Shown here: positions 21,601 through 49,400 of the stretch, in pieces
Position numbering within the stretch: position 1 is the first letter of the stretch
How the letters are laid out: the number at the start of each line of letters is the position of its first letter
Source: Branchiostoma floridae
Lineage: Eukaryota > Chordata > Leptocardii > Amphioxiformes > Branchiostomatidae
DNA: 64,000 nt
Direction of reading: 5' to 3'
Assembly (NCBI RefSeq): GCF_000003815.2
Contig: NC_049979.1
Coordinates: 10,889,381 to 10,953,380, forward strand
The notes under the pieces: generated by a model
Database searches by the model: none
What the model was told of the DNA's origin: nothing
The model's input: the letters and a program-made list of their open reading frames with translations, nothing else
Position numbers and translations under genes: made by a program

Positions 21601-23326
21601 GTACAATTACAGTATATTAACTGCTTAAAGCTTAGCTTAAAATGTTCAGCTCGTCATTGCACAGGTAAAATCTTTTCATAGTTTTGCATTGTCCAGGTCC
21701 ATATTACGGTTAAATCATGTAGATATTACTGTTTAATTGTCTTGTTGTGATTTTCAAATTGTGTATTTGTTTGCTTGGTTCCTGCAGGGCCCAGCATCCA
21801 GCCAGTGGCCGGACTATGGAGGTGCGGACGAACCAGCCCGGGGTGCAGTTCTACACGGCCAGCTACCTGGATGGGACGCTGGCTGGCAAGGGTGGGGCCA
21901 AGTACAACAAACATGCAGGCTTTTGTCTGGAAACCCAGGTCTACCCTGATGCCATCAACAAAGTGAGCTCTGTTGTCTTTGTTCGGGTTTGGAGTCACGC
22001 CTTTGTTATTAGGAGACTCACAACAATAGGGATAGGCACTGTCATTCTATTAATATCTCTGAAGCTGAAGTTTTGTAGTCTTCTTTGTTTAACTTTGAAG
22101 TCATGCCTTTGTTATTTGCAGACACGTAGATAGGTGTAGGCATGACATAGATCTCACCAATTTTTTTTTCATAGGCTAATGCTAGATTGTTGTGTTCCCT
22201 TGAAGATAGAATCTGCCTGGACAAAAACTATTATTCATGTTGGCACCAACATTGTATTGGATCTTACTGTGGGATTAAACTTCATCACTTAGCAGTAAAT
22301 TGGGTAATGAATGCCTCTAGGGCATTTTAAAAGTCTGCTATGTTAAAGTTGTAATCAGGTGATAAGTGATGTTGGTATCCACATGGGGGCCCCACTAATC
22401 ACAACCTTCAAAACTTCAGAGAGCTAGAGCTCCTCTTTTGCAATCTTTCATATTCTTTTGCTGCTTGTCTAAAGTTTTTGATCCTTTATTTACATTGGGG
22501 TATCTTGCAGCCTGCTGGCTGAATTGCATACTCATGACAATCAGACTACTTAAAGACGTTGCATCACACATAAAACTTACTTCTTATTCTCGTTCTAATA
22601 TTAAGACTTATTCTGAAATGTTTGTTAGTAGCGTGCGGTAGTTGTGCATTGTACACTACATTTATTTATTTATTTATTTATTTATTTAGGGTAGTCCCTT
22701 CAGTTAACGTGGTAACTGATTTCCAAGGGAGCCCTATAACAATAATAATAACTCAAAGTACAAAAGATAACTACAAACATAGGATTGAACATAACAAAGC
22801 AATAATCCAATTCGGGTTTGTAAATCATACAAGCAACTTAGGAAAACTCAAAAGAATAACAACTCATACTTAATAACAAAAACAAATCAAGATCACAAAC
22901 TCATAGGGGCATTGGACGGTCATTGCGGTCAGAGGTCAGATGTCAGTGCCATTTGTCCTGATCAATCGGACTGAACATAAGAAAGAATAATCCAATTCGG
23001 ATCAGTAAATCATATACGCAACTTACTAATAACAACTCATACACAATAACAATGAATGTGTTACATCATCATCATCATCTGATGAAGTTGGAGCACATAT
23101 CAGTTAAGTCCTCTTACAGACCTTGTCGATAACATACCATGTATGAGGTTCTTCCCATGTAGACATGTCTCAGTTTCAGTCAGTTTCTGGTATGAGGTAC
23201 ATTTTGTATCTTACCTACTGAATGTGTTGTCACTGCCTCCCTGTCCAGCCCCACTTCCCCAGCAGTGTGCTGCGCCCAGGCGAGACGTACCACCACCACA
23301 CCTCCTACAAGTTTGTGCTGGGGTAG
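15602..23326 (+). CDS. GALM: Aldose 1-epimerase (galactose mutarotase), complete
   Basis: Interconverts the alpha and beta anomers of galactose and glucose, feeding the cytosolic Leloir pathway (family knowledge). Seven exons: 15602-15794, 17301-17455, 18370-18579, 19145-19226, 20734-20881, 21788-21962 and 23249-23326. All joins have GT-AG ends and keep frame, giving 346 residues against about 342 in human GALM. The family's catalytic residues are visible: His in HLHGG (H108), His in [13 protein letters not shown] (H178) and Glu in GFCLETQ (E311). Other family signatures are [12 protein letters not shown] and [16 protein letters not shown]. There is no signal peptide. The start was chosen because the ATG opens the beta-sandwich directly ([17 protein letters not shown]). 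Its neighbour is the divergent hnRNP L-like gene. Introns contain several dispersed repeats. Confidence 0.95.
18193..18307. repeat. Dispersed repeat ending in TATACCCTAAC
   Basis: The segment, from ATCAACTG to TATACCCTAAC, has relatives at 30589-30706 (nearly end to end, including ACGGCAAGACATTTCA against ACGGTCAGACATTTCA) and 23991-24075 (partial). A truncated start is seen near 27632. This is a mid-size interspersed element of unknown class, here in a GALM intron. Confidence 0.5.
18600..18833. mobile_element. MITE, CAGGGCTGT family (copy D, left end lost)
   Basis: The right terminus CTGGAGACAGCCCTG is intact at 18819-18833, and AAAAATTTCACC occurs near 18664. The left terminus is not recognisable. 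It begins shortly after the donor of GALM exon 3. Confidence 0.45.
22660..22738 (-). mobile_element. 3' end of a non-LTR retrotransposon with (TAAA)n tail
   Basis: Read on the minus strand, the segment runs GGGCTCCCTTGG ... GGGACTACCC and then into about seven TAAA units. A unique 3' end leading straight into a short microsatellite tail is typical of LINE-type insertions. Only the last roughly 50 bp of the element body is recognised. It is in the GALM intron 6. Confidence 0.5.
22782..23053. repeat. Two-copy imperfect direct repeat
   Basis: Segments 22782-22878 and 22967-23053 share the order GAACATAA, AATAATCCAATTCGG, GTAAATCATA, GCAACTTA and AATAACAACTCATAC. This indicates a duplication with a period of about 185 bp. 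No coding potential. Confidence 0.55.
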
Positions 23327-27048: not shown

Positions 27049-28159
27049 GTAAGGCTCGATAGAATCGGCTGAAACACACCCACTGCAATGTTAATAGACA
27101 TTGGGACAGTATTGTGTTTTAACTATAGTTCTAATGTGAACTATTATGTTGACGGGTGGATATTTTCTCAGTCTGGGTAGCGTTTGTCAGAGCAAAGCGA
27201 ACATCCAAGCCCTTTCGATCTCACGTTTCGTGGATCATAATTAGGCCATGAATAGAACAGGTGTCATGGCGGCTGTCTATGACAGGATGTACAGGATGAC
27301 CAAACTGATGTAATCCCTCTCACACACATATGCTATCTCCACAAAGTACTGATTTTCCTCTTCGCGAGACAACTGCCACTTGGGCCAGGAGAGATTATCA
27401 ACATATCCATTAAGTCATAAACGACCACACTAAACTGCTAGGTGACGAGGCATTTCTATTGTCCGAACAAAGTTCACCATCTTGTAGTATTTGCACGCAG
27501 TAACTAATCTGTTATGGCAATTATCGTGCACAGTGATTTTGTCGATGTATGAAATAATATACATTTATTTTTATCCATTCGTCGATAAAGATAAGATATC
27601 GAGGTAGCAGGATATATTAGCAGTTCATTCAACTGGATATGATTTTTTTTTCAAAACCATATCAAGCTGCTTGAGTCAATGCTATTTGGCATACCTTTAT
27701 TCATTGTTGTGACATTTATTGTTTTTGATACACATGTATGTGTTTCTTTCGATCATTTTTATTCGATAATTGAGCAAAGAAAATAATGTTTTACACAGAT
27801 AGAAGTTTAGTCAGGCACGTATATTGATGTGTCCTCAAATTCACCAATTTTTATTGCTGTCGGATATCATGAAATATTTATTACACAAAGCCAATCTTTC
27901 GTTCACTCGTCATGCAGACAATTAACTATGATATGAATTATGATTTACTCCAGTGATTCCATGTGAACATCATCTTGACGACACGACAGAAGCCAGCCAG
28001 AAAGATGAATGATTTCACCCGTTTCTTCGTGCCATAACCTTCGGTTCAAATATCTGATGACTAGAAGTACTGTTTCTACAACTTGCTGAAGACTTATTCC
28101 GGTGATAACTGATATCAGCGTGATCTACCAACCGGAGTCTGTGTGGAGCACGCATAACG
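27049..28159. other. AT-rich gap before the NHR exon
   Basis: No gene is seen. A fragment resembling the repeat at 18193 and 30589 occurs near 27632. If the candidate exon at 26972 is real, this would be intron 1 of the following gene; otherwise it holds that gene's promoter and 5' leader. Confidence 0.4.
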
Positions 28160-31100
28160 ATGTATTTCCACACCGTGCACGGCACTGCCATCACCCTGTC
28201 GGGCGACAGGCTGACGGCTACGCGGGGAGACGGCTTCTGTAACGGCATCACCTTCAGCGCCGCCCCCATGGAAGTCGGCGAGGAGATCTCGATCGAGTTC
28301 GTCTCGACGACGTCGTCCTGGAGCGGCGTCTTGCGCTTCGGAGCCACCTCGGTGGACCCGGGCACGTGGAAACAGGAGGACCTGCCGAGGTACGCCGTGC
28401 CTGACCTCACCAACAAGGAAGGCTACTGGGCGAAGGCGATGCCTGAGAACCATTGTGAGCCAGGGAACCTGATGACGTTTCACGTGGACGCTCAGGGAAA
28501 CCTGAGGTACTCCGTGAACAATGACGACAAGGGAGTGTTCCTCTCCGGGCTGCCCACCGAAGTACAGCTGTGGGCGCTGCTGGACGTGTACGGGGTGACC
28601 ACCTCCATCAAGTTTGTCAGTACCGGTGAGTTCTCCATTTTTTTCAATCTTCGCAAAGAGGTCTATGTTGTCGATGCTGTTTGTATGTGTGTTTGTGTGT
28701 GTGTGTTGGTGCCTTAATACTTTTTGGGAGTCCAAAACTAAAACAATAGATAAACCCGAATAATTCCCCCCTTGACAGTGATGTTGCTCCGATCCTTACA
28801 GATGATGTCCCCACTGAGATCCTTGCGCGCGGCCCACACGCCCTGAAGGCGTTCAAGGAGGCGGCCAGCTCGGGCACCAAGCCGGTGTTCCGCACCCGCC
28901 TCATGCTGGTCGGGCAGGACAGGGTCGGCAAGACTAGCCTCAAGAAGTCGCTCACGGGGCAGACGTAAGTAACGGGACGACAGACGTTATTCCGAGGTTA
29001 AACGTCTATACCCACTTTTGTAAACAGTTAATCAGACTGGTAAATTAATGGTTAACAAACTTCTTTGCACACACAACCACACAACGGGAAATGTGTTTGA
29101 TGGTCCACCGAAACTGCTACAGGTGAAAAACATTGGTTGACTTTAAATGAAAACTTTGTGTACCAATATTTTATCCTGCACTACATCCTGAAGCACTGCA
29201 TACCAGCTATACCAAGACATCTTTTCCTTCCTCAGGTACGACTCTGGAGAGATCAGCACGGACGGAATCGACACCGCGGACGCCTGTGAGATCAACGTGC
29301 AGGACGCGACTTCCTGGAAGGTCCACGGCAACCAGGAAGACTCAGACTCAAAGAAGAAAGGCGTGCTGGGTAAGTACGGTATCCGTAGCACCGTCCAAGG
29401 CGTCACACTACACGGAAATAGCTTACCCTACGAGTCTGCGAGCTCAAAAGGAGAAGTTTCGGTTGTTATACTGCCGGTGTCCTATCGTTTACTGAAACCA
29501 AGGAGATTTTTTAACCTCCTTGCTGAAACTGAGCAATGTTAGGGATTAGCAAACGTTAGCAGGCCACCGAGTCCTGTCATTGCACGGTGGATTTTAAGGC
29601 AAAAATACATTCGACTCTGTGGTGATTTTGATATTCGATGACCTTCTGGCGATCAAAAAATTCGACCGAATGTCATTACCTGTGTGGCGCCGGTTTTCTG
29701 ACTCTGCACACAGAAGTAGGTAATGACTCTACAGAGCGGGCAGTGAGAGATCACGTATACATACCACTGTTCGCTTGTGCTGAAATTCTACCATGTTATT
29801 TTCCCCAGACGGATCGTTTGGAGTGGAGGAGGAGTACGCCCAGGCGGTGGCGCACAACATCGTCAAGGCGCTGGTAGCTGAGAGGAGGAAGAACAAGGAC
29901 ACGGAGGAGCCCGCCAAGAAAGCGAACATTTCGAAGGGCCCCGTCAAGAGCACCGAAAACGCAACAAGCAATGATGATGACGAGAAACCGGTGGATACAG
30001 ACCAAATCGTCGAGGTATTCATTGTATTTTTGTCCGATGATGATATCTAGCCCCCATACATGTACATTTGAAACAAGACATTGGAATTCAGCACAATCGT
30101 GAATTCTACAGGAACAGATTGGATTCGGAGCCTCTCCTAGGACGTATTGGAATCGGGATCAATTCTTGGACAATCTGCGATTCTACTAGTATAGATTGGG
30201 TTAGGGTTAGTACAGCTAGGCTAACCTTAGCCTCAATCCTATCTAAACTACTACTGGTAGAATCGCGAATTGTCCTAGGATCCCAAGCGCAATCAAATTA
30301 AGATAGATTCTAGTTTGTCATAGGACAGATTGCGCTCGCGGACTGCCCTAGGATAAGTCTGTAGATCTGCATTACAACTTTCAGCCCAGCACTGGTGCGT
30401 TGTGGCTAAAATAATCATGGTGTCGAGCTGCTTGCCCAGACTAACTTAACCCAACTTCTCCGAGTGTTTCCGTCCTAACTGATGTTCTGTAACTCCCGTG
30501 CCTGTTGGTCTTCATTGGTTCGTCGACGTCGCAAATACTTGTGTTTGGGTAATATAGGGCACAACATTGTGATTACAACTGTCGTTTACTCAATCAACTG
30601 GATATGATTTTCAAACGGCAAGACATTTCAGCTAGCATTCACTACCTGCCGCAACACCGGGAACACCGATGAAATCTTGTTGTAGAGCAGGTTTTATACC
30701 CTAACTGTAAATTAAACGGATGATATAAGTCGTATACTCACTATCGTTTTATACCAACAGGTGTACAACAAGCCCCCCGAGCACACTGAGATCTCCCTGA
30801 AGGATAACGACCTGCTGAAGGACATGCCAGCCCGCGTGGTGGAGCTGGTGACGGGCCTGCTGACGGAGGCGGAGGAACACGGGATGGAGCACAAACCTGC
30901 CGAGGAGGCCACCAGGCCCAGCATCATCATGAAGATATGGGACTTCGCCGGGCAGTCTGTGTACTACACCACACACCAGGTAATGTTTCAGTCCGTGTAG
31001 TACACCGCACACCAGGTAATGTTTCAGTCCGTGTAGTACACCGCACACCAGGTAACGTTTCAGTCCGTGTACTACACCACACATCAGGTAATGTTTCAGT

Positions 31101-34100
31101 CCATGTACTACACCACACATCAGGTAATGTTTCAATGCTAATCATAGTTCCTCTTATTGTAATCAAATGCAATGACTTCCGCAGGTGTTTCTGACGCCGC
31201 GAGCCGTCTACACCGTGGCGTTTAACCTGTGCCATGACCTGGACGCCAAGGCGCTGACCCAGGTGCGCCGGTCGGAGGGGAGCGACGATAAAGCCAAGGT
31301 AGGGAAAATGGTCACTCTGCATTGCAAATACGTCATGCTTTACTCATGTTTATATTTCTGTTGCTTATGTTTACAACAACCTCTGTTGTATGTTTTCTTC
31401 GTTGTTGCAATGAAGTTCTTTAACGGAAACATTTATCAGTCTACGTGAAAGCCAACGCATTTGAGAACTGTAGTCATACATTACGTACCGGCTGCCGGTG
31501 CTATTTTTGATAAAGTTTGAAGCTAATTAGAAATGACCAACCGAAACTGTTGATCACCATGACAATGACACACCCTACATATACTGTAATAACATGTCAC
31601 CTTCTGCCACCAGATTGAATGGGAGGAGAGTGAGATGACCAACATGGACTTCCTGGAGTTCTGGGTGAGCTCGATCCACGCGCACACGGCAGATAACAAA
31701 CCTAAACTGCAGAAAAACGGTCACAAGTCGCCGCCGATCTTCCTCGTGGGAACGCACAGGAATTCCCTGGATCCGGACCCTGCCGTCTGCGAGAAAAAGG
31801 TGTGTGTGCCTGTGTTTGCTTTGAACGGTCACAAAATGCCAACACATCGGTGTAATAATCAAACAGACAGGCTGAGTCCTTAGAGGTTTTAGTGGAAGAA
31901 GATTAGATATAGGACCTTGATTAGAGAACAAAATTGGCTTCAAAACCAAAGTACAACTACAACATCATTGGATGAAATCCACAGTGCCTAGTCCTAGACA
32001 ATGTGTTCTAGATGTGTATTATATGATGTAACACGTGGACATTTGTATCCACAGACTCGTGAGATTTTCGCAAAAATTCGGAAGAACCTGAAGGGCCGAC
32101 CGATGGAGGGTCACGTGGTGATGCCGTACTACGCGGTGGAAAACGGGCTGGAGGACGACACAGAGGTAAATCGGTCGCACAAATACATCTTGTAACGTTT
32201 CATGCTTCTAAGCTACGCAACAAAGTAGATTTTAAAGCATTGGATTAGCAGAGTTCATCAAGCCCCGAGGAAGAAAGGTTGTTGCTAAAATCTACCCGGC
32301 TGAGTAACTAAGAACCCGGTATAACGTAATGTTTTTTACCAACCCAATATAACTACTTAATAAAGACACAAACCTAATTGAACCATGTAACCATATCGTG
32401 TAGCAGATGTGGTAGGGTAGGATCATATTTCAGTACCAAAGACAGGACCATGTACTGTACATGTCGCAGGGATATTGAGACATGATCACATTTTAGTATC
32501 ATGGACAGAACAATGCATTGTAGCAGGGATTGTGGAATAAGATCACATTTCAGCACTAAGGACAAGACCGATACAGTAGTAAGGTTAATAGGATTGAGAC
32601 CACAGCTCAGTAGGAAAGACAGAATACTTCTAGTAGAGCCGTATGATATGATCAGTTTTCAGCACCAAGGACAGGACCTCGCACCGTAGCGGGGGTTGTT
32701 CGTTAGGATCACTTTTCAGTACTAAGGACATGACCATCTATCATAGCAAGGGAGGTAATATAGAAGTCTTGTGAGTTGTGATTCTTACATAACGGTCACG
32801 GATATGTTCTACATGCCCGTTATAAGTGTTCAGACTTCACAACGCTACATCTTACACATCCCCAGATCGCCAAGCTGCGGCAGCACATCGAGGAGGTGGC
32901 GTACGGCGAGCCGTACATGGGGGAACACATGCCCATCAGGTGGCTCAAGTTCGAACAGTACGTGGCGCAGGAGACGGAGAACGGAGTGGACTCTCTGTCC
33001 CTGGAGCAGGTAAATGATGCGGAATACAAAATGTACAAGTACAAAACCTTACACGGGGCTAGGTGCACACACCTTAGATTAGATACTTTTGATGATTTGA
33101 TGCTATAACTTCAAGATACTACTGAGCACAATGACGTTGAGAATAAAGAAAGGAAGGATATTAACGTTACATATCAATTGCACAGAAAATGTATTTAGTC
33201 AAATGTAAAGCCCATGTCCTTTCCTGTTCTCATGAGAGGGCAAGAATCTCTCTTATGCATTCAGCAATCTACATAGCCGAGCGAGAGCAAGTCCATCCAA
33301 CTGGGACCTTGTGTTTCTGTACACTATACACGTCATATCTTCCTTCTTTAGGTCCAAGAATCCGTTAAGAAGTTCGGCATCCACAGTAGAGACGAGCTGG
33401 TCGCCATGCTGGGGTTCTACCACGACCTGGGCACTATCGTCTACTTCGGTACCCAGGGCGCCGTGGACGACACGCTGCAGAAGACGGTCATCTTCAGGCC
33501 ACAGTGGCTGGTGGACACCTTCAAGAGGGTCATCACAGTCAAGGACATCGATGATCAGGTATGTCTGCCAAAACAAAGTGTATGAAAAGTGTTTAAGACA
33601 TATTTCAAATAATTAGTATCAAACAGTATTGTACGGGATTTTATTGGAAGGAAGCATATTACCACCTGGAGCGGCCTGTCGGCATAAACGTTACAGCTCA
33701 TTCCTATACATGTCAGATACTAAAAATATGTGCTAGGATAGTGACCCATCTATAAATCCCAAAATGTCAAGATCAATCCCTTGATCTTAAGTGGCATGAC
33801 ATGAATAAAAGTTGAAACGTTCTGACTGTCTTTGAAAGGAATATATTTAAATGTGCACACTTCGATCGGGATCTCTATCACAATATCTATAGAAATCTCT
33901 ACATGAGTTAGCAAACTGTGTCGTTACGGCGTCGCTCACGTGTATGATGGTTACCGTTCCAGTGGGACCGGTTCAGTGAGGCGTGGGCGCGGCTGGACGC
34001 GGAAGGCGTGCTGGAGGACTCGCTGATAGACTACATGTGGCGGGACGTGCTGCAGCAGAAGCCGCTCCTCCTCAACCTCATGGACAAGTTCGACCTGCTT

Positions 34101-37100
34101 TGCGAGAGGCTTCCGCCGAAAAAGGTACCTCATCCTTTGACGCTTCGGTCACATTTCCAAACCGTGGCCTGGCCGAGATGTTAAATGAAAGTGTTTATCA
34201 CGGAAAATACACGAATTATTGACATGACTAATCATATTCCGTTCTGTGTGCTTTGTTCACTCTTTTATTGTACTTTTCGTTCCCGAAAGCTGCCCGGCCG
34301 GGCCCCGGTTTAAAAATGTGACATAGTGTGAGGAGAAGATGACTGATGACTGATAATGAAGTTCCTGCCTGGATGTCTAACCTTCATCGACTAAGGCTTA
34401 GGTCGCATTTCCAAACCGTGGCCCAGCCGGGATATTTTGAGAAACAAAAAATTAAAATGTATACCTAGAAATATACACATATTATGCCCATGAATCTTAT
34501 TTTGACATTTTGTGTATTTTGATGTCTTATGTATCATTCTTTTCGCTCCCGAAAGCTGCCCTACCGGGCCCCGGTTTGAAAGTGTGACCTAGGCTTAAGG
34601 GATGTTGAGCTGACAGTTAGATGTACAATGGTTTGACAGGGCATTCCGTGTGACATAACATAACCAGCTGTTGCCGCATCCTGTTGTCCTGTGTAGATCA
34701 CTTCCGAGGAGAGAGCGGACTGGGTGAAGAGTTATTACGTCCCCTCCAGGCTGCGTGAGAAACCTCACGACGTGGAGACAGTCACGGACCAACCGCACTT
34801 CTCCTTCTTCCTGTGGTTCCACGGCTTCCTCCCAGGTACAGTTAGAGAGCATGTTCGGATAATAGCAATTAAATATGCATCATTTCTCGTAACAGATAAG
34901 GCACAATCCTGGTGATGGCATGTACTCAGATACACATTGGTTTACTGACAGCCGGGAATGAACTTGCTTTACCAAAGAAGAAAGAAATGGTCAGTAGTGT
35001 GCTACTGCTGAAGGACTTTGCAGAGATAATACTTGACAAGCCCAGCAAAACCTGGTAACAGCAATTAAGCCCCTTCGAGCATTCAAAAGAGGGCCTACAA
35101 GATAGTTGTAGTGCTGTCCATGGTACTGAATGAACCTTTAAAACAACTGTGTTCCTTAGAAAGACGTGAATGGTACTATCATACTGACACAAATGTGATA
35201 ATTTGCATAATTCTTTTATGCTTTTCAATCAGAAAGGGTAGTTACAGCACTGTACATGGTACTGAATGAACCTTCAAAACAACTGCACAACATAAGTGTG
35301 CTGCTTAAAAACAGTGTCTTCAAACTGTTGCAAATGTGTCAAGCATCACTGCAGTGTATGATTTATTGAGTTTTGCTCCCACCAGACGGGCTGTTCCACC
35401 GGGTGCTGACCCGCGCGGTGCGGTGGGCGCAGGAGTGCGGCGGCCGGGAACCCCAGCTGTACTACCGGAACGCTCGCTTCTACCTGGACGAGGAGCACGA
35501 CTACCTGCTGGAGATGGCTCCGCTCAGGCTCTCCAGGATCAAGGTGTGCCCCAATAACTACGTCATCTCGTAGCTCTTAGCATATGAAGTCTAGCGATCC
35601 TGTGTCTGGTCGTGAGTTCGAATCCCAGCTGGTGTCCCTCACCCGAAACGGGAAGGGTATGACGGCGGACGTTAAGCCGTGGTCCAGTGTTCATTGTATT
35701 TGTCGGAAAGAGCTAGGGGAATGGCCCCGTTACAATGCACCTACATATATCGTACCTTTTGTTGCATTTTCTGTCATGACCAGTGGAAGGCCATGACAGA
35801 AAGGTCTTTCGTGGGCTATTGTAAAACTGGTTCGAGATCACTATCACTTTTAGACTGGCTGGCGCCAGCAACTTACACGAGCCAGCAATATGTGTTAGGT
35901 ATAAGAAAGTCATATTATGTTATGGCTTACTGGTCTTCAATACTCGAATAAATCTGCGTCTCTTCTCTATCGTACAGCTTGACGGCATACGTTAATGAAA
36001 ATGCAGTCCATGATAGACTGAAACGAAAGAGGTAATTTTATCAACGAGTTGTCTAATATAAGGCTGTTTCGTTTCCAGGTGTCAGTGGTCCGGGTGATGG
36101 ACCTGTCAGATGATGCAGAGGAGGACGATCTAGGAGAAGCCAAACTTCCTCCTCCGGACCCACAGTCGTGTGCCAGGGTATGTAACCACCGTCCCTCATT
36201 TCATTGCCTTGTGTATTTGTAAGTACAGTGCGATTGGGATGGGGCATGCATGGACTGCCGCGATTTGTTGGTCTTGTATCAAACATGAAATTTTATTTCT
36301 AACAACGGAGAACAGTTTCTGTTTCAGTTCTTCTCATGTAACCCGTATACTTGAAATGAAACACGAAACGGACCCCAAAGTAGCAACAGCATGCCTTGTG
36401 AATACTTATTGGCATAAACATTAACGTTTCGTTGCAAAATACCCGACCGAGCCCGTGGTAGGACATGTGATGTGGGCCTGAGTTAAGTAGTTCAGTGCCC
36501 AGATGTGGTCTCTGAGTTGGCCTTGCACTGAGCAAACTCGTTTGGCTCGCACGTCAATCATGAAACCAGGTTAGTTTGTCTGACAGATGTGCTCACCCTT
36601 CTGCTGATCTCTCCCCCAGGTGCGACACTTTGTTGACGCGACGCTGGCGGACCTGCAGGAGATGTGGATGAAGAGAGTGAAGTACAGCGTCACCGTGCAG
36701 TGTCCCTGCGGGGACCCACAGGAACACTTCCTCTCACTGGACCAGTGTCTAAGCGGGAAGGTAACGAATTCTGTGTCATGCGTATCATTCTATACATACA
36801 GAAAAAATTCTGCAGGGAAGAGATCAAATTTAAAGACTCTCATAGGAACCTGGAATAGGATAGATAGCAGGCTATATAACGGGATCGCACACATTAGCGT
36901 TTCTTGAAATGAAATAAGTATCTTATGATGTTCTAATAAATGTAAGAGAGAAAAATGCTGAGAAGTAATTTTTAAGTCCTCACTTCATCTATATATATGC
37001 ATATTGTAACAAAGTACACTCTACTAAGAGACAACTATGGTTTATAAGTTCTTTCCAAACAACTAATGTTTTTCACCCGCCGAAGGTCGTTATGTTATTT

Positions 37101-40100
37101 TGTGCAAAGTTTAACCCTTGATTCGCCAACCTGATTAAACTATTCAAGAGAGAGACTACAATGGAACACAGTAGTACCGCACATGTCCTAAACTAACCAA
37201 CGCTATCGCTTTCGTGTGTTGTAGGTCGTGCTCTGTGAGAAGAACAAGCGAGTCAAGACCCTGCCATTCAGGAAGAACTTCCCGTCGGAAACAGTGGCAG
37301 GTCAGATTCTGATTGTGTCTTCAATGTTCTGCACACGTGTGACATGATCTGAACCTTTCTTCATATCGTTTGGAGTACTGTACACCTCAGCCCGGTACAA
37401 TGCCTCAGGGGCTGAACTCTGCCTGGCATTCGGCAGGTCAGCCAACATCATCCCCGATCATACAATACAAAGACTTTTCTTGTTTTAACACTCAGCACTT
37501 ATGATAAAGGGTAGTAGTACACAAGAACAGTGGACTCCTACTCCTACCATGGTTGCCTGTGTGGCCAAAGGCTATAGAAACGAAAATGGGCACCACCCCT
37601 ATATACCGAAAGGTGTAGGAAGGATGTTAAATTTTCATATTAAGATCTTACTCAGATAACTTATCAGTAACGTTACGCTTGTCTTGCAGCCCGCCCGGCA
37701 GCCCCGACAGCCGCGCCCCTGCAGCCGGGACAGCTGCCCCCGTGGGTGCCGGAGGCCGCCAAGCTTCTCAACTCCGACAGAAACGCCGCGGACTGGGCGG
37801 AGCTGGCCAACAGGCTGGGTGAGTAAAGTCTGATATGAAGTTAAGATGTATCCGACGTGACGTTCGGTGTTTGCCACTAGCTTATTTTTTAAGGTTCTTA
37901 ACTGTAAAGTAATTGCATAAAACTTTTTCTTGAATAAATCATATAGATCGTGAATCACCGGCCTCAGATTTTAGTTTTTAAAAAGGCCAAGTATGTTTCC
38001 TGGTCGCTACTTTTCATGTTTGCTATATTGTCTCATCAGTATACAAATTGATACTTAGTGATCAGAACATGGTCGGTATAAAAAAAGCTGTCTTCGCTTT
38101 GTAATAATTAGGCTATAGTAGTCAGAAGACGGAGACAAACCGGGAAGCAAACTGGAGTGAGAATGGTCTTGTTTTAGCGCTAGTGAGCCTATACTACAGA
38201 GATTAGACTCAATGTTTCCCCTCTGTAATACCCAGGCTACAGCAGCCAGAAGACGGAGACGTTCATGAAGTCCGCGGACCCGACCTCCGCCCTGCTGCGG
38301 GACTGGCTGGACGGCAGCGGGGAGGCGGCGGTGGACCTGGTCACCAAGGCGCTGGAGAACATGGGCAGGGACGACGTGCTGCAGGTCATCAGGGGCCGCC
38401 AGGGTAGGCGCAGTTACCAGTTATAAAGTTGTTTTGGATATTTTTAATACAAAGTCAGCTCTTCAATAACTGAGATGTTTAGACCGTGTTGTATGAAAAT
38501 AAAGTATAAAGTGAGAGTGCAGTTTGGCGTGACATTTGCGACATTAAGATTCATGTCATTTGAAAGTTCAGGAGGAAGTAATCTCCATATTCTATCAAAT
38601 TGTAGAGATTGTTATGTCTTTGAACAGTTTGCCTGCGGATAAACGTATTGATGACAACTGTTTGTCCTACAGGAGCTGTTGACACCCAGCCCGACATCTT
38701 CATCAGTTACCAGTGGGACATCCAGGACCGTGTGCGGGACCTGCGGGACCGGCTGGAGGCTGCCGGGTACCCCTGCTGGATGGACATCGGGCAGATGGGC
38801 GGAGGGGACGCGCTGTACGAGAAGATCGACCAGGGCATGAGGGCGGCCAAGGTGAGTACATCAGAGACAGATCTGACATCAATGTATGGTCTGAGCTTTA
38901 GACGCTATAGAATTTAGCCTGGTATCCGCCCGTATTCGTCTACCTGAGTTGGTCCCCACCCTTAAGCGCTGTACGAGAAGATCGGCCAGGGCATGAGGGC
39001 GGCCAAAGTGAGTACATCAGAGACAGATCTAGCATCAATGTATGGTCATGAGCTTTAGACGCTATAGAATTTAGCCTGATATCCACCCGTATTTATTTAC
39101 CTGAGCTGGTCCCTACCCTTAAATATAGTATAAGCGCCGTACGAGAAGATCGACCAGGGCATGAGGTCGTCCTAGGTCGGTAGATCAGCTGTAGTCCCTA
39201 GCAGGCTCCATACTGGCCATGGGTTGCGTTCTTGCGGATAAAAAGAGTACAAATTGACCAAAGAGCGTGAACAATTTGCCGGTGTCCCTTGGCATCCTAT
39301 AGATGGTCAGCTAACTCACTTGGCAAGTTGTTAAATGGTATTTTTCAGGAACCTAATGAGTACCCCAACTGTCTCATGTTAAAAGTGTTTACGTCAATGG
39401 TTTATACGCTTTATACGCTGTAGAATCAGCTACTGTGTGGGGTCGACTGTTTTATGATACATGATATTCCATGGAATGGTTGAGAAATACACGTTCATTA
39501 GGTATTTTCTTGGTTTCCTGTATACTACACGCAGTATCTTACCCAGCGCTGGTCTACAGTTGATATATATGGTGAGATATACGTTATTCAAAGTGCTCTA
39601 TTGTTACCTTTAGACATGCTCTATGCCCTAAACCTCCAAACCTCTAACATGGATTGCTTGTCCTGCAGGTTGTGATCGCCTGCCTGACCACCAAGTACTC
39701 GGAATATACATAGTTGTTATGCGCTTTGCTGTAAACTACCAAAACTAACATGGGTTACTTGTCCTGCAGGTTGTGATCGCCTGCCTGACCACCAAGTACT
39801 CGGTGTCGCAGAACTGCAGCAAGGAGATCAACCTGGCCAGCCTGCTGGGGAAGACCATCATCCCCATCATGTTCCAGAAGATCGACTGGCCCCCGCCCGG
39901 CGGCATGTCCCTCATCTTCTCACCGCTGCTCTACATCGACATGACCAGTAAGTTTGGAAACAGTTTTATCAGGTTGTTAGTTCAATAATTTCGACAAAAG
40001 AGGGGCCTCCGTGTCCCCAAGTAGCAAACTTTGTTGCGTGAAATCGTTTTATAATTCGTCGAAAGTAAATTACGACGGACTTTATTTTATAACCAAAATT

Positions 40101-40685
40101 TGAACCATCGCCGACGTTTTAACAACCTGTCTACTGACATCCTCAAAGGATAAGGACAAATAGGATCATTAATGACTAGTAAAACATACTGTCAGACCAA
40201 ACCAATTAATATGAAGTAATATGAATATGATATTCTAATAATTTGATGTAACTGGGCTAAGTTTTTCTTTGATTTTTCCAACAACTACTTATTGTAAAGA
40301 TGGGCCAGTTCTAGCAGTATGTTTCACGATTTTCTCCATCAATTGGTGCATCCACAAATTTATCAAATCATTTTCTGCATACGGATAATCATTCAGAGAA
40401 GTGACATTTTGCCCGTCTGTTTATCCAGGCAACGGTGGTGGCCATGGCGGTGCCGGCATCCACTCCAAGCTGGAGACCAAGTTCCAGGAGGTGGTGGAGC
40501 GGATCCAGACCACCATCCAGCCTGTCGGCGCGGGGAAGAGGGACAGCACGGTGCCAGAGTCACCGGAGAAGCAGGCAAGCAACACCGGCAGTCCCGCTAA
40601 GAGACCTAACAGTGCTGCAAGGCGACCCAACAGTGCAGTGTCCCAGACACAGGTCACAAAGTGTGGGGCATGTGTCATACTGTAG
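28160..40685 (+). CDS. NHR - Roc - COR - death domain - TIR protein with CaaX box
   Basis: A multidomain ROCO-type protein, probably a membrane-attached innate-immune or cell-death signalling switch (inferred). Exons: 28160-28625, 28802-28964, 29236-29369, 29809-30014, 30761-30979, 31185-31298, 31614-31799, 32055-32165, 32866-33009, 33352-33558, 33963-34124, 34697-34835, 35386-35543, 36079-36177, 36620-36760, 37225-37300, 37690-37818, 38236-38403, 38673-38851, 39770-39947 and 40429-40685. All joins keep frame, giving about 1,211 aa. Domains: Neuralized repeat 1-155 ([16 protein letters not shown]); Roc GTPase with P-loop GQDRVGKT (193-200), switch II DFAGQ (384-388) and VGTHRN (479-484); COR about 540-800 ([18 protein letters not shown]); death domain about 925-1005 ([23 protein letters not shown]); TIR about 1014-1126 ([21 protein letters not shown]); C-terminus CVIL. 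The ATG at 28160 opens a complete NHR. No gene symbol is known to me for this architecture. Confidence 0.9.
30589..30706. repeat. Dispersed repeat, relative of 18193-18307
   Basis: The segment from ATCAACTGGATATGATTTTC to TTTATACCCTAAC matches the GALM-intron copy along most of its length. It lies in intron 4 of the Roc-COR-TIR gene. Class unknown. Confidence 0.5.
30959..31138 (+). repeat. Five 36-bp copies of an exon end plus its donor site
   Basis: The last 21 nt of exon 5 (encoding VYYTTHQ) plus GTAATGTTTCAGTCC form a 36-bp unit repeated five times. Donor-like CAG|GT positions fall at 30980, 31016, 31052, 31088 and 31124, exactly 36 bp apart. Every unit carries both TTTCAG and CAGGTAA(T/C)G, so each spacer copy could act as a 24-nt exon. 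Copies 2 and 3 have in-frame TAG, while copies 4 and 5 stay open (SVYYTTHQ and SMYYTTHQ). Confidence 0.9.
32383..32755. repeat. Diverged ~57-bp minisatellite
   Basis: About six units recur with the pattern GATCACATTTCAGYACYAAGGACAGGACC followed by a variable GTAGCAGGGATTGT-like part (written here as a consensus in two pieces). Divergence between copies is high. It occupies the intron between exons 8 and 9 of the Roc-COR-TIR gene. Confidence 0.7.
34146..34324. mobile_element. MITE with GGTCACATTTCCAAACC ends (copy 1)
   Basis: The left end CGGTCACATTTCCAAACC is inverted at the right as GGTTTAAAAATGTGACAT. GC-rich GGCCTGG and GGCCGGGCC blocks lie just inside. A sister copy lies about 70 bp downstream (34395-34599). 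Both are in the intron after exon 11 of the Roc-COR-TIR gene. Confidence 0.65.
34395..34599. mobile_element. MITE with GGTCGCATTTCCAAACC ends (copy 2)
   Basis: The left end GGCTTAGGTCGCATTTCC pairs with the right end GAAAGTGTGACCTAGGCTTA. The interior shares CCCGAAAGCTGCCC and CCGGGCCCCGG with the copy at 34146-34324. Two same-orientation copies in one intron suggest local duplication or a preferred target. Confidence 0.7.
35570..35800 (+). mobile_element. tRNA-derived SINE-like element
   Basis: A tRNA-like head is visible: TAGCTCTTAGC near 35571 in the position of an A box, and GAGTTCGAATCCC (35614-35626) matching the RNA polymerase III B box consensus GGTTCGANTCC closely. About 170 bp of unrelated sequence follows. 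It begins a few bases downstream of the stop-containing read-through of exon 13. It is not a functional tRNA because no acceptor-stem pairing is seen. The right boundary is uncertain. Confidence 0.55.
38101..38136 (+). repeat. Decayed duplicate of the exon 18 acceptor region
   Basis: GGCTATAGTAGTCAGAAGAC (about 38111-38130) mirrors GGCTACAGCAGCCAGAAGAC at the start of exon 18 (38236-38255). Similarity extends to the preceding GTAATA and the following GGAGAC. The acceptor AG is preserved, but the frame gains a TAG, so it is a non-coding relic of the death-domain exon boundary. Confidence 0.8.
38809..39172 (+). repeat. Three copies of the first TIR exon end and donor
   Basis: The last 43 nt of exon 19 (encoding [14 protein letters not shown]) and the following intron sequence recur at about 38966-39007 and, shortened, at 39134-39172. 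Copy 2 retains a GTGAGT donor (39008). Copy 3 has lost the homologous end. Periods are about 156 and 168 bp. The flanking ACATCAGAGACAGATCT is shared by copies 1 and 2, so the unit is exon plus intron. Confidence 0.88.
39650..39702 (+). repeat. Truncated duplicate of the second TIR exon acceptor
   Basis: CTTGTCCTGCAGGTTGTGAT at about 39658-39677 repeats the true acceptor and exon start at about 39759-39778, and identity continues to TACTCGG. The copy then runs into a TAG at about 39711-39713. Using the upstream acceptor would truncate the TIR domain just after KYSEYT. Confidence 0.9.
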
Positions 40686-40967: not shown

Positions 40968-40973
40968 AATAAA
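40968..40973 (+). terminator. Polyadenylation signal AATAAA
   Basis: AATAAA lies 283 bp downstream of the Roc-COR-TIR stop codon. A second AATAAA is at 41687-41692, so a short and a long 3' UTR are both possible. Confidence 0.45.
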
Positions 40974-42509: not shown

Positions 42510-44872
42510 TCACAGCAGCCATGGCATGTCTTTCCTTGGAAAGTCCTTGGCAGTGAATCTGGTATCATACGGACGTTCTCCCCTCCACTTCAGCAGCTCC
42601 TGCAGACACTGCAGGATGACCGGGTCAAAGTTCAGGTCAAACTTGTTAGCAAACAGGTGATGACAGTCAATCAGCCACTGCATGTCTCCGACTCCGAAAA
42701 TGCACACGTCTCGCACGTACTTCCCCTGACAGGGTGGGTACTGCTTACCCTCGAAGTACACCCACTTGATGGCACGGATGGAGGACGACCACGTGGGTTT
42801 GGAAAACCCACCCGGAGCTGATGGGAGTTTGTTCAGGGTGGCCCAGTAGAACTCGTCTGGGCTGAAAAATAAAAAACGTATGAAAATTTTGTCCACCATC
42901 TAAAATTACATAACATTTAATACATAACACATTTACACTATACGGATTTATCAATCCATTGTAACCACTATCTAGCTATTTTCTATGGAACATATTAAAC
43001 AACAGTCCATCTTACCATAAACCCAGGGCATGGAACACATTTTTCTACATATCTTAACTTAACTATAGATCCAACTGGAAACAGTTAGGAAACCATTGCA
43101 GCTTTTGCATGCTATAGTCAATATAGTAAAAAATCCTCATAGTACATGGTCTAGACATCATAAATCCCTGCATCACTTTAAGCTATACGGACCTGTATAA
43201 GCAGATAGTATTTTTATGTACCTGTATGTGTCCTGAGACCACTCCAGTAGGTCCTTAGCTACCTTGTCTGTCAGCACCCAGCTCATGAATGCACGGCTGG
43301 CGATGTAGTATGCGATGCCAGTATAAATGGTCACATTGTGGGGAGGGGGGCTTTTCCTCTTTTCTGTCTGAACCACTGACATCTGACCATCCTGAAAGAA
43401 ATTGTTGAAGGAGCAAACGTTAAGTAACATATATCCACTGCAGGTAACACTGGGGTAAGATTTCTAACCTTTGGTATCAATTCACCCACTAACTTTTTTA
43501 AAGACATTTTTCTCTTTTCACAAGTGTAGAACAAAATCCTACAAACTTGACATTGAATATGCAATAGGACAAAAATCTTCATGAATATTTTCATCAGGTT
43601 GTAGCAGAACCGACAATATTGTCCTGAGGAAGGTAGCAAAAGGACTACCAATATGCTGGCAAGCAAGTATCTCTTGATTGAGTGCTGAGAACTTTGCTAG
43701 CCACACATCTAGTTTAATAATTTAAGTTTTTTTGCAAATTTTTCCCTGTGAGTGAGTGAGTGAGTAAGCTAATTGCAGGTAACATGGAATGGCACTGACA
43801 AAAGTGTATGCGTCGACTCTACTTTAACGGTTAACTCTAGATTCTAAGTTGTTGGGTTTGACTTCTCTAATAAGCATCAGAATTATCATATCTAGACTTA
43901 CACTATTGGAGACTACATCGTGGACAAAGCGTGTCCTGTCCCCATGGATGTTGCTGGAAGACTGGACACCAGGAATGTCATTCTGTCCACCAAACACTCT
44001 CAGCTGTGCAACAATCTCATTCTGCGTCTTGAGTGGGAAGTCCTGCCCAGCCAGGTTGATCACATAGCGCCATCTGACGGGGGAGCTGACCAGGTCGTGC
44101 AGACAGTTCAGGTCTGCCTGTAGCCTGCTGTACCCGCCGTACACGACGGACTCCAGTCGACGGGAAATGAAAACATTGTCATAGCAGTCCGCCACTGCCG
44201 ACAGCACCGCTCTGAACTCGGACGGAGACCTTTTGTCCACATGTATGCAGTATACGTTGTACGGAGTGTAGATGGAATGTAGTAACAGTTCTACCTGAGC
44301 AGCGTTCTTGTGCACGACGAGGATGTATGCTATGGGAAAGTCCCTTGTGTCCACTCCAGCTGACAAGTTCTGCTGCCAGTTCTGAGTATAGTCAAGACAG
44401 CTTGCAGCAGCAACATTCAAATGATGAGAATGTGAGAGAGCTGTGCTAGACTCAGTAAGGTCTGCTTTACTTTGGTTCCTTTGGAGTAAGTCAACACAGG
44501 TGTCCCAGGCAACAGGTCTTTGGGCATGAGTTTGTTTTGCGTGGTGACTTTCTCTTGTGCTGTGTCCAGTGACTCTGTTTCTGCTGCTCCTGATGTGGGA
44601 AAGAAACAAGATTTAAAGTTGATTCAATAGCATCTGGCCACCATGCAAGCAGTTCCATTTTATGAGTGTATTCATCTATAGTTCTGAGAAAAAAAGATGC
44701 CTGTGCCAAGTTACATCTGGAAAAGTGGCATGTACCTTTTGAGAAAGCTGGTAACATGTTGTTTCTTCACAGTCATGTAGTTTGATAAGAAAGCGAGCCC
44801 TACTGCAGCCATGAGGCACACCAGCAGGACCAGACCCAGCCTCCTCCTCCTGCAGGGCACCAGTACTCCCAT
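42510..44872 (-). CDS. GCNT-type beta-1,6-N-acetylglucosaminyltransferase, complete
   Basis: Golgi type II membrane enzyme of family GT14 that adds branching GlcNAc to O-glycans or poly-lactosamine (family knowledge). Minus-strand exons: 44872-44736, 44589-43902, 43391-43222 and 42861-42510. Joins keep frame and give 448 aa (human GCNT1 is about 428). Residues 1-11 are short and basic (PCRRRR). A single membrane span follows at about 12-31 (LGLVLLVCLMAAVGLAFL), then a stem. GT14 signatures: FPIAYILVVHKNA, YNVYCIHVDKRS, RLESVVYGGYSRLQADLNC, INLAGQDFPLKTQNEIV, WSQDTYRSPDEFYWATL, YPPCQGKYVRDVCIFGVGD and HHLFANKFDL. Which GCNT paralogue it corresponds to cannot be set from sequence alone. It is transcribed divergently from the RdRP gene. 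Confidence 0.93.
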
Positions 44873-46436: not shown

Positions 46437-49400
46437 ATGGAGGCAGCACAAGACGAAAGCGAGGAAAGTGTCACCGCCGGGCTGCAGGCTCTTTCTATCT
46501 CGACACCAACGACTGGCGACTCGCGAGAGACACAAACGCTTCAAGGAAAAGTCCACAACGCTAACAGTCCCGAGTCACAGGAATACGTCAATGAGGTGTT
46601 CCTACAATTTACACGAAGTTTCTCCTGGCATGACGCTTCAGCACAGCAAGATGGTTCACATATCATCACATTTGCTCCCCTTGACTCGCAAGTCGTGAGC
46701 ATGTCAGCTATATGCCATCAATGGTGCGGCGCCGTGGAAGAGGGAAAGCCTTACTGGCTGGAAATCCCCCCAAACCAGCTGTTGACGATGGAGCGATCGT
46801 CACCCAAGCCGACACAACTGACGTCTCTGCAAGTCTTGGATGTCGCCAGCGTCTCCTTTGGATGCTTCCTCGATCACAGCACCTATATCAGCCACTGGAC
46901 GGAGGCATCTGACGAAACACTGGATATCACACTGCACCTAGAGCATGACATCCAGTCCCTGTCAGTGTACATGTCTGTTGATTATCCGTACAGTGACGAC
47001 CTAGGTCCGACAGAGAAGCTAATCATCCCCTACTCCGGCATCGACAATTTCGTCCTCGTGTGTTCTCGCGATAGTGAGGACATAACTCTGTTCTTTCCGC
47101 TCAACAGTGTACCCCGATGTTTCAAGACGAAGACAGTCACCAACAATTTTGGCGAACAGTACGCCCAGGAGGACAGGATCCTATCGTTCTCCTCCTGTAC
47201 TGCCGACATCATGGGTTCCAGCTCGGTGCTGGCCGTGCACATCACCGACAGCTCAGCAGACGGCTCCGTTACAGAGGACGTGCTGCACAGGCTGCAAAAG
47301 GTTGGATTTGACGTCTACTTTTCGTCGACCAGAGTAAAACAGGCACCTCAAGCTACAGCTGACTTGAAAATATTCAAGGACTTCGCGGACTTTTCGGTGA
47401 CATATGCCTTGCACTGCCTGCTGTCGAGGGGTTACAAAGTCTCCGACCGTGTCCAGCCGTCCTTTTTTTCCAACTTGGAGGCTGCTGCGAGGCACGACCC
47501 AGTAGCTACAGCAGCCGCTCTTCACCAGGTGGCAGACGGCTGGGTTGACGGGGACTGCTTCTGTGACTTAGAGGAGGCATTTCAAACAGAGCTGGAGGTG
47601 GCGCGTACCACGGGCCCAAACGACGCAGATGATCTCCCCGACCATTACGTCTACGCGAGGAAGGTGGTGGTCACGCCCACTCAAATGTTGTTCCTCAAGC
47701 CCGAGCCTATCGTCGAGAACAGGGTGGTCCGAGAATACGGCGTCGACAACTTCATCCGCGTCGCTTTTCGAGACGAAGACTTCAACAAGCTTACTGCTCC
47801 GAACCCCAACTCCATCAAGTGCGTGACGACACGGGTGAAAGACGTCCTACAGAGAGGCATCAGGATCGGAGGGCGCCACTTCGAGTATCTGGGCTCCTCA
47901 AACAGCCAGATGAGGGAGCACGGCTGTTGGATGTACGCGGCTGAGGACGAGACGACGACGTCAGACATCCGCGCCTGGATGGGCGACCTGTCGCACGAGC
48001 GCTGTGTGGCCACGTACGTCTCACGGCTGGGACAGTTCTTCTCCTCCTCTCGGGACGCGGTCAACGTCAGCGTCGAGGACCGAAGCGTCGCCGTGATCGA
48101 TGACGTCACGTCAAGTCAAAGGAGGTATACGTTCTCCGACGGCATCGGGAAGATCTCCGTCCCACTTGCTGAGAAGGTACTGTGATTGTGTCATTTTGGG
48201 TTGAATGATTGATTTAAACTTGGGAAATACAATGTTTCTAATGACTTCTACATCCATCAATGGTTTTATTAGGTTGGCAAACCACAATAACAAAGTTCTT
48301 TGTGAACAACCAGAGTGCCTTAATACTTAATACCTATCTATAGAGCAAAGTACTAAAATTGCATCCAAGTTACTTTTTAAGTTTATCTAAATTGCAATGT
48401 TTCTAATAATTTTCAGCCCCATTTGACAAATGACATGCGAAATTCAGCCCTGCGAAAATGAATGAAGTGTTACAAAATGTTGAATTAAGATACTAATATT
48501 TTGATAGGTAGCGGCAGCTCTGGGTGTCTCCCCCGTCCCCTCCGCCTTCCAAATCCGGTACGGCGGCTGTAAGGGTGTGCTGGCGCAGGACCCCAGCCTG
48601 GGCCACACGGACCTGATCCACATCCGGGGCAGCATGAAAAAGTTCGAGTCGGAGCACAAAACTCTCGAGGTGACGTCCGTCACCACACCAGGTGAAGACA
48701 TAATTACATTCACGCTTTTTGAAACCCATCTGATTCACGTTCTCAACATTATTGCTTGAAGATATATAGCAGGTTATGGTGTCATGGGATGCACGTCTCG
48801 TTGCAATTAGCTATACATGATAAAAATAGAAAAAAACTTCATCGCACAGCATGCAATTGTACAAGTTACAAAGTATGGCAATTTCTTCAGACTAATCTAC
48901 CTAACACAAGAGCGTGTAGTATTAAGTAATTTCTAACGTTTAGACATTTTCTTATGTATCCCACACAGGACTTGTCATATATGCATGGTCACTAATTATA
49001 TTATTCTCACTACATGTTATGCTGTTGCTCAATTTTCTTTTGTTCGGTATTTTATAGTTGATATTTATTTATGCCCTGCAGGTGCCCTGAGATAAGATAG
49101 GATAGTGATAACACAGTATTGATCGTATCCCAACCCTACAGGTGCCATGAGATAAATCATTAATGATAATACAACAGTGATGATATCCCGATCCCGCAGG
49201 TTCCCTGAGCCTGAACAGACAGGCCATCACCCTGCTGTCTGGTCTCGGCGTGCCCGATGAAGAGTTCTTCAAGTTACAGGAACGAGTGCTGAACCAGCTG
49301 GCGGAGATGCTGCTTCTGGACGGGGCGGCTGTCAAGGCTCTGTCTGGTGCCCGAGTGGGCATAAAGTAAGTAATGATGTACGAGTTACTCTCCAAGCAGA

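What the first reader, a model, noticed from the sequence alone, without database searches (positions are those of the whole stretch)
28160..40685. NHR-Roc-COR-death-TIR fusion with a prenylation motif
Seen: one continuous frame across 21 exons joins a Neuralized repeat, a Roc GTPase and COR module, a death domain, a TIR domain and a C-terminal CVIL. Known: Roc-COR proteins (LRRK, DAPK1, MFHAS1) sense or switch; death and TIR domains recruit immune or cell-death partners; NHR domains bind membranes or E3 partners. Inference: a single protein that could link GTP switching at a membrane to TIR signalling. I know of no vertebrate protein with this order.
Basis: partly seen in the sequence, partly recalled or inferred. 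Interest (0 to 1): 0.88.

Follow-up and report, generated by a model that had tools for sequence, protein, structure and literature searches.

The report
Lancelet switch protein with TIR end
A lancelet gene encodes one large protein that joins a binding domain, a nucleotide-dependent switch, a death domain, a possibly enzymatic TIR domain and a lipid-anchor tail; the domain combination was already noted in other invertebrates, but what it does is open and testable.

Summary
A 21-exon + strand gene (28160-40685) splices with GT-AG at all 20 introns into one 1211-residue frame: Neuralized repeat, Roc, COR, Death, TIR_2, ending CVIL. No second full copy was found in its genome.

The TIR is not of the Toll/MyD88 type: its nearest solved relatives are bacterial TIRs, Cat1, SARM1 and AbTir. 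It keeps the catalytic-position glutamate (E1086) but has Asn where the usual WxxxE tryptophan stands, as do 11 of 12 lancelet relatives covering the site. The Roc carries a ~147-residue insert, and its G4 motif reads THRN; relatives vary there (Asp in 6 of 11). A GTP switch at a membrane is plausible but unproven.

The combination is not new. A 2016 survey notes a Neuralized form of a Death/TIR_2 protein in a centipede and an oyster; a 2022 sea-hare figure legend lists NHR, ROC, COR, Death and TIR.

Most likely it is a prenylated ROCO switch that clusters its TIR to consume NAD in innate defence or cell death. The gene is well supported, the mechanism only moderately.

The parts
28160..28625 (+). 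Exon 1: start codon and the whole Neuralized homology repeat (aa 1-156)
   Evidence: Pfam PF07177 1.4e-41; 'Protein neuralized' structures 2yue/4kg0 at 4.4e-45 and 4.6e-45; the stop-to-stop ORF that holds the ATG begins at 28124
28802..29369 (+). Exons 2-3: linker, Roc G1 P-loop GQDRVGKT (aa 193-200) and switch I region
   Evidence: Pfam Ras 188-225; aligned to Roco structures 4wnr and 3dpu
29282..30907 (+). Approximate span (introns included) coding the ~147-residue insert inside Roc (aa 226-372)
   Evidence: Gap between the two Roc-homologous stretches
30761..32165 (+). Exons 5-8: Roc G3 DFAGQ (aa 384-388), G4 GTHRN (aa 480-484), end of Roc
   Evidence: Pfam Roc 373-410; LRRK2 and Roco structures aligned at G3
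31761..31763 (+). Codon AAT (Asn484), last residue of the G4 motif
   Evidence: Sequence. Relatives at this position: Asp in lancelet L007, L060 and L019 and in plasmid L066-L068; Gly or Gln in plasmid L062-L065 and L069
32866..37300 (+). Exons 9-16: COR-A (aa 556-696) and weakly matched COR-B region (aa 744-880)
   Evidence: Pfam COR-A 6.6e-14, COR-B 0.16; 24 COR-region matches elsewhere in the genome at 29-36% identity
37690..38403 (+). Exons 17-18: Death domain (aa 941-1004)
   Evidence: Pfam Death 2.5e-10; NRADD 6.5e-9, TNFR16/p75 1e-6, MyD88 2.2e-5
38673..39947 (+). Exons 19-20: TIR_2 domain (aa 1016-1128)
   Evidence: Pfam TIR_2 7.6e-23; Cat1, bacterial TIRs, SARM1 by profile; intron position shared with lancelet TIR relatives
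39824..39826 (+). Codon of Glu1086 at the SARM1/AbTir catalytic-glutamate position (motif NCSKE; Asn1082 in the place of W)
   Evidence: Glu on Glu of SARM1 and Cat1; Asn on Trp in the Cat1 alignment and in two bacterial TIRs; Glu in 12 of 12 lancelet second-half sequences that cover the site
40429..40685 (+). Exon 21: Ser/Ala/Pro-rich tail and stop
   Evidence: AATAAA at 40968, 283 bases after the stop, weak evidence since the hexamer is common here
40671..40682 (+). C-terminal CVIL prenylation motif, with a second Cys three residues before its Cys
   Evidence: CVIL = yeast Rho5 tail, canonical geranylgeranylated (PMC11304957 passages)

Best explanation
This is one gene for a ROCO-type switch protein of lancelet innate defence or regulated cell death. 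Proposed working: a C-terminal geranylgeranyl group ties it to a membrane; the N-terminal Neuralized repeat binds a protein or lipid ligand; nucleotide-dependent rearrangement of the Roc-COR core (a dimer in known ROCO proteins, recalled) brings copies together; the death domain helps them cluster or recruits partners; and clustering switches on the TIR as an NAD-consuming enzyme of the SARM1/bacterial class. Shown here: gene structure, single frame, domain order, TIR class, the catalytic-position Glu, and the CaaX motif. Inferred: ligand binding, dimer switching, clustering, NADase activity, prenylation, and a role in defence.
For: One open frame over 21 exons, with 0 of 20,000 chance sets open.
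Domain matches.
TIR profile nearest to Cat1, bacterial TIRs, SARM1 and AbTir, with the Glu aligned to the SARM1 Glu.
Glu kept in 12 of 12 distinct lancelet second-half sequences that cover the site.
That Glu as critically important for NADase activity: PMC7075850 passages; PMC11374754 passages.
In bacteria the slot behind the AP-GTPase(Roc)-COR core is filled by at least 24 effector-type domains, TIR included (PMC8195603 passage).
Of 8 plasmid Roc-COR proteins scanned here, 3 end in an effector-associated domain (one of them just below its cut-off), and the gene of another is followed by a DUF4062 gene.
CVIL is the yeast Rho5 tail.
Against: The WxxxE Trp, essential in AbTir, is Asn here, and Asn (11) or Ser (1) in the 12 lancelet relatives that cover the site.
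The Glu is present in more than 70% of all TIRs, so it is weak evidence of catalysis.
SEFIR chains, including the adaptor TRAF3IP2, also match the TIR profile (6e-4 to 1.4e-3).
G4 ends in Asn; relatives vary, so GTP binding is open.
COR-B is below threshold.
None of the 8 bacterial relatives scanned had a TIR.
No RNA, protein or activity data.
PMC7075850 (2020) says only SARM1 among metazoan TIRs has known NADase activity.
Confidence: 0.4

Rival explanations
1. Adaptor: a MyD88-like protein whose death and TIR domains only recruit partners, with the Roc-COR core as scaffold. The TIR is not an enzyme.
For: Death then TIR is the MyD88 order; the death domain matches MyD88 at 2.2e-5; the WxxxE Trp is missing; SEFIR adaptor TRAF3IP2 matches the TIR profile at 0.0014; the Aplysia survey files a ROCO-bearing Death+TIR protein under MyD88 (PMC9334734 section 11).
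Against: By profile the TIR is nearest to bacterial and NAD-consuming TIRs; Toll-type chains come at E 0.05-0.6 and MyD88 not at E<=1. The death domain matches NRADD and p75 better than MyD88.
Confidence: 0.35
2. Pseudo-switch: the Roc-COR core no longer works as a GTPase (Asn484 at G4, long insert), so that ligand binding by the NHR alone drives death-domain/TIR assembly.
For: G4 reads GTHRN, whereas the three lancelet relatives with a readable motif end in Asp (L007, L060: THID; L019: GTHSD); long insert inside Roc.
Against: Five of eight plasmid ROCO proteins also lack Asp there (NEKQ or NEKG), so the position is not strict in this family; G1 (GQDRVGKT) and G3 (DFAGQ) are intact; Asn is one base from Asp and could be a single allele or an assembly error, which I could not check. 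I lowered this rival from 0.17 to 0.1.
Confidence: 0.1
3. The 21 exons are two or three separate genes or transcripts that happen to keep frame.
For: No RNA was available; a decoy acceptor at 39669 would end the protein inside the TIR, so shorter isoforms are possible.
Against: All 20 junctions keep frame, the four at domain borders included; what is probably the same combination is reported in other invertebrates.
Confidence: 0.05

Closest known systems
Neuralized/Death/TIR_2 proteins of Strigamia maritima and Crassostrea gigas, and sea-anemone 'Novel Gene 3' (Pkinase, SH3, Roc/COR, Death, TIR), in PMC5094078 (section 11 read)
   Same: A Neuralized domain in place of kinase and SH3 in a protein otherwise like NG3, which has central Roc/COR, Death and TIR
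   Different: The text does not spell out Roc/COR for the centipede and oyster proteins and, in what I read, no C-terminal CaaX motif; I had no sequences of them to compare
Aplysia TIR and COR proteins, among them the MyD88-like LOC101861518 (PMC9334734: passages incl. Fig. 6 legend; section 11)
   Same: The legend lists NHR, ROC, COR, Death and TIR as domains of these proteins; the MyD88-like one has ROCO plus Death and TIR
   Different: The text I saw does not say which protein bears the NHR; class of TIR and tail not discussed in what I read
Bacterial AP-GTPase(Roc)-COR conflict proteins (PMC8195603 passages; eight plasmid examples)
   Same: Roc-COR switch with a variable sensor in front (LRRs in bacteria) and an effector or effector-associated domain behind
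   Different: LRR sensor instead of NHR; EAD instead of Death in 3 of 8; 0 of 8 scanned had a TIR; no eukaryotic prenylation
SARM1 and bacterial TIRs (AbTir, Cat1)
   Same: TIR class and catalytic-position Glu
   Different: W of WxxxE is Asn; regulation by Roc-COR and Death rather than ARM/SAM (recalled) or other partners
LRRK2, DAPK1, MFHAS1
   Same: Roc-COR core; LRRK2 matches at G3
   Different: No kinase, LRR or ankyrin part; NHR and TIR instead (DAPK1 and MFHAS1 recalled, not compared here)

Membership tests
ROCO (Roc-COR) proteins | Roc GTPase domain with P-loop and DxxG motifs | tested here: met
   Pfam Roc 9e-13; GQDRVGKT and DFAGQ
ROCO (Roc-COR) proteins | G4 base-specificity motif ending in Asp | tested here: inconclusive
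   Here GTHRN. Asp in 3 of 3 lancelet relatives with a readable motif and 3 of 8 plasmid ones, not in the other 5, so the feature is not strict in the family
ROCO (Roc-COR) proteins | COR after Roc | tested here: met
   COR-A 6.6e-14; COR-B weak, 0.16
ROCO (Roc-COR) proteins | Nucleotide-dependent dimer switching | not testable with these tools
   Needs protein
TIR NADases (SARM1/bacterial class) | Sequence nearest to NAD-consuming TIRs | tested here: met
TIR NADases (SARM1/bacterial class) | Catalytic Glu in the C helix | tested here: met
   Glu1086 aligned to SARM1 Glu; 12 of 12 relatives that cover it
TIR NADases (SARM1/bacterial class) | Trp of WxxxE | tested here: not met
   Asn1082; 11 Asn and 1 Ser in relatives
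TIR NADases (SARM1/bacterial class) | NAD cleavage | not testable with these tools
   Needs an enzyme assay; therefore not filed as a member
MyD88 | Death domain followed by TIR | tested here: met
MyD88 | Toll/IL-1R-type TIR (PF01582) | tested here: not met
   Only TIR_2 listed in Pfam at E<=1; no MyD88 chain at E<=1 by profile
Neuralized (NHR + RING E3) | NHR domain | tested here: met
Neuralized (NHR + RING E3) | RING finger | tested here: not met
   No RING among the ten families listed at E<=1
CaaX prenylated proteins | C-terminal Caa[L/F/I/M/V] | tested here: met
   CVIL at the stop; consensus from PMC11304957 passages
CaaX prenylated proteins | Actual prenylation | not testable with these tools
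   Needs labelling or localisation

The most novel reading that the evidence does not exclude
A membrane-anchored enzyme in an invertebrate chordate whose TIR consumes NAD under control of a Roc-COR switch: the animal counterpart of bacterial Roc-COR effector systems, with the death domain in the place of bacterial effector-associated domains, and a decoy splice acceptor that can make an enzyme-dead, unanchored form.
Probability: 0.2. Interest if true: 0.75.

Novelty: new member of a known kind. Interest (0 to 1): 0.5.

Why it matters
If the TIR is an enzyme, it would add an animal TIR NADase beyond SARM1, the only metazoan one known in the 2020 survey I saw (passages), and one wired to a nucleotide switch of the LRRK2 type and to a membrane. 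It would also tie animal ROCO proteins to bacterial Roc-COR defence proteins by mechanism rather than by domain names alone. As far as the search reached it has no second copy in its genome, so a knock-out should be readable.

Tried and rejected
A first automatic splice model misread exons 17-19 in a wrong frame and chose other ends for exons 4 and 8; it was replaced by a model whose ends I set by hand from the sequence and the ORFs.

A tandem second copy in the window was looked for and not found. A second full copy in the genome was not found: of 39 matches, 11 are this gene, 4 are other NHR exons (35-51% identity) and 24 are COR regions (29-36%), but only 38 of 233 candidates were scored.

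G4 as a striking oddity: my first look used a pattern that demanded Asp, so it could only find Asp. An alignment without that demand shows Asp in lancelet L007 and L060 and plasmid L066-L068, but Gly or Gln in plasmid L062-L065 and L069; with L019 that is 6 of 11 relatives. I withdrew the claim of an unusual G4 and lowered the pseudo-switch rival. In the other lancelet relatives held (L017, L018, L022-L024, L026, L049, L055-L059, L061) the motif was not recognisable in the DNA at hand.

Exon shuffling as class 1-1 modules: the four introns at domain borders (1, 16, 18, 20) are all phase 1, against 7 phase-1 introns of 20 (chance 0.007, chosen after the fact). Against this, several lancelet TIR relatives appear to enter the TIR at a phase-0 acceptor, so I give it little weight.

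Bacterial sequence relatives: two scans of the prokaryote genome collection found none. The plasmid collection gave 11 records with a match; I fetched 8 of 11 and scanned those 8; none had a TIR.

Of 15 distinct second-half TIR sequences, three did not cover all three motif positions and were set aside. Two of those read Gln at the Glu column, where the stretch begins at a differently placed intron; the preceding exon of that C4 group reads NCNHE.

Full report
What is there. The window lies in a genome of 513 Mb and 431 contigs. I rebuilt the gene exon by exon. It has 21 exons from 28160 to 40685 on the + strand, GT-AG at all 20 introns, a 3636-nt coding sequence, 1211 residues, third-position GC 0.84 and intron GC 0.41. 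As a chance control I drew 20,000 sets of intron segments of the same lengths and none gave an open frame. The stop-to-stop ORF that holds the start codon begins 36 bases before it. Upstream coding exons cannot be excluded.

Domains. Pfam gives Neuralized, Roc (in two stretches), COR-A, a sub-threshold COR-B, Death and TIR_2. Most are backed by solved structures. The NHR matches 'Protein neuralized' (2yue, 4kg0; Drosophila, recalled) at 4e-45. The Roc-COR matches Roco structures 4wnr and 3dpu (archaeal and bacterial, recalled) and LRRK2. The death domain matches NRADD, p75 and, less well, MyD88. The TIR matches bacterial TIRs, AbTir and SARM1. The protein ends in KCGACVIL. From its own amino-acid composition, an end of the form C-aliphatic-aliphatic-[LF] has a chance of about 1 in 7,400. 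CVIL is the tail of yeast Rho5 and is treated as a canonical geranylgeranylated sequence in PMC11304957 (passages).

The Roc. About 147 residues are inserted between switch I and G3. G1 and G3 are intact. G4 reads GTHRN (Asn484). I first took this for an oddity, but the pattern I had used on the bacterial proteins demanded Asp. Aligned without that demand, the position is Asp in lancelet L007 and L060 (THID) and plasmid L066-L068, and Gly or Gln in plasmid L062-L065 and L069. With lancelet L019 (GTHSD) that makes Asp in 6 of 11 relatives. So Asn484 differs from the three readable lancelet relatives but lies within what ROCO proteins vary in. Whether it binds GTP is open.

The TIR. A profile of this TIR and three lancelet relatives finds, in the PDB, Cat1 (4.5e-7), bacterial TIRs including AbTir (1.9e-5), and SARM1 (1.3e-5). 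SEFIR chains follow (6e-4 to 1.4e-3, the last an adaptor, TRAF3IP2). Toll-type chains come only at E 0.05-0.6 and no MyD88 chain at E<=1. That Cat1 consumes NAD is recalled; SARM1 and AbTir are named NAD hydrolases in the listing. Glu1086 aligns with the SARM1 glutamate of WVHKE (the SARM1 Trp falls in a gap there) and with the Cat1 glutamate, where Asn1082 falls on the Trp. Across distinct lancelet second-half sequences that cover the site, 12 of 12 keep the Glu; 11 have Asn and 1 Ser where the Trp would be. PMC7075850 (passages) calls that Glu critically important for NADase activity but also present in more than 70% of all TIRs. PMC11374754 (passages) reports that AbTir needs its Trp. The class therefore points to an enzyme, the missing Trp points away, and only an assay can decide.

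Relatives in the same genome. The full protein matches no second copy: 11 of 39 matches are this gene, 4 are other NHR exons and 24 are COR regions at 29-36% identity (38 of 233 candidates scored). The Death-TIR piece matches 51 places (67 of 67 candidates scored), 5 of them this gene. These TIR relatives lie beside other modules on the same strand: an LRR exon in L046 and Armadillo repeats in L048, and a death-domain-like exon in L040 (1.6e-4); that each pair is one gene is inferred. Of four relatives whose TIR exon I followed to a stop (L046, L048, L035, L033), none ends in a CaaX motif; the others were not followed. One COR relative (L049) has an exon matching OTU protease behind it. Lancelets thus seem to shuffle the same modules widely.

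Bacterial parallel. Eleven plasmid records hold a match to the Roc-COR part at 21.6-31.6% identity. I fetched and scanned eight: all have Roc, COR-A and COR-B; seven have LRRs in the same protein, and the eighth has an LRR gene directly before it. Three end in effector-associated domains (EAD11 just below its cut-off, EAD11, EAD1) and none has a TIR. One is followed by a DUF4062 gene; the listing of a 2026 preprint describes DUF4062 as TIR-like NADases (PMC13174449, abstract start only). PMC8195603 (passage) states that in bacteria the place behind AP-GTPase-COR is taken by at least 24 domains, TIR among them. This supports reading the animal protein as sensor, switch, adaptor and effector in a row: it may work like those systems. 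It does not show descent from them.

What is in print. PMC5094078 (section 11 read) describes 'Novel Gene 3' of sea anemones (kinase, SH3, Roc/COR, Death, TIR) and says the most similar combination has a Neuralized domain in place of kinase and SH3, in Strigamia maritima and Crassostrea gigas. PMC9334734 lists NHR, ROC, COR, Death and TIR in the legend of its figure of Aplysia TIR and COR proteins, and reports a MyD88-like protein with ROCO domains (passages; section 11). [quoted passage not shown] I saw no figure or supplement of any of these. The amphioxus survey PMC2575513 reports many amphioxus-specific TIR combinations, but a term search of its main text found no 'neuralized', 'roc' or 'GTPase'. 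Ten literature searches, of which 60 and 61 were on side questions, brought up no description of this lancelet gene that I noticed in the listings and passages; subscription journals are largely outside the library.

Judgement. The gene and its architecture are sound (about 0.93). As a kind of protein it is a new member of a combination already noted. The mechanism I think most likely, a prenylated ROCO switch that clusters a catalytic TIR, stands at about 0.4, mainly limited by the missing Trp and the lack of any activity data.

Noticed in passing
39616-39803: An 87-base duplication (87% identical) copies the acceptor and first 34 coding bases of exon 20. Splicing to the upstream copy (from 39669) would read [14 protein letters not shown] and stop, giving a protein without Glu1086 and without CVIL.
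   Followed up: partly
30953-31134: A 36-base unit repeated 5.1 times (93% matches) spans the end of exon 5 and its donor site, giving several decoy donors.
   Followed up: no
38810-39188: The end of exon 19 with its donor is duplicated twice in intron 19 at 86-87% identity.
   Followed up: no
46728-53714: + strand gene for a eukaryotic-type RNA-dependent RNA polymerase; stretches at 46728-48176, 49202-49360 and 50532-53714 match PF05183 (5.3e-47, 1.2e-7, 2.1e-85), and the first also matches a metazoan RdRP-associated PH-like domain just under its cut-off.
   Followed up: partly
56554-62786: + strand stretches matching dynamin N-terminal and central regions (58111-58245 at 3.8e-6; 62613-62786 at 9.1e-6, the latter under its cut-off), possibly an Mx-like protein. 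With the ROCO-TIR and RdRP genes this makes three genes of possible defence role in 35 kb.
   Followed up: no
42513-44240: - strand stretches matching a Core-2/I-branching glycosyltransferase, downstream of the gene and convergent with it.
   Followed up: no
15656-21968: + strand gene with an aldose 1-epimerase match (18373-18552, 1.8e-15); the outer coordinates are from coding-like stretches only.
   Followed up: no
8503-10053: Inverted repeat: 8503-9167 and 9397-10053 are 85% identical in opposite orientation, perhaps a foldback element.
   Followed up: no
L049:6688-7104: A stretch behind a lancelet Roc-COR relative matches OTU cysteine protease (1e-7), another effector-like domain after COR.
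   Followed up: no
L062:2310-5101: On an Acaryochloris plasmid, LRR, Roc-COR and DUF4062 genes follow each other on one strand.
   Followed up: no
L062-L065, L069: The five cyanobacterial plasmid Roc-COR proteins all have NEK[QG] at G4, without the usual Asp, which may mark a subgroup with different nucleotide binding.
   Followed up: no
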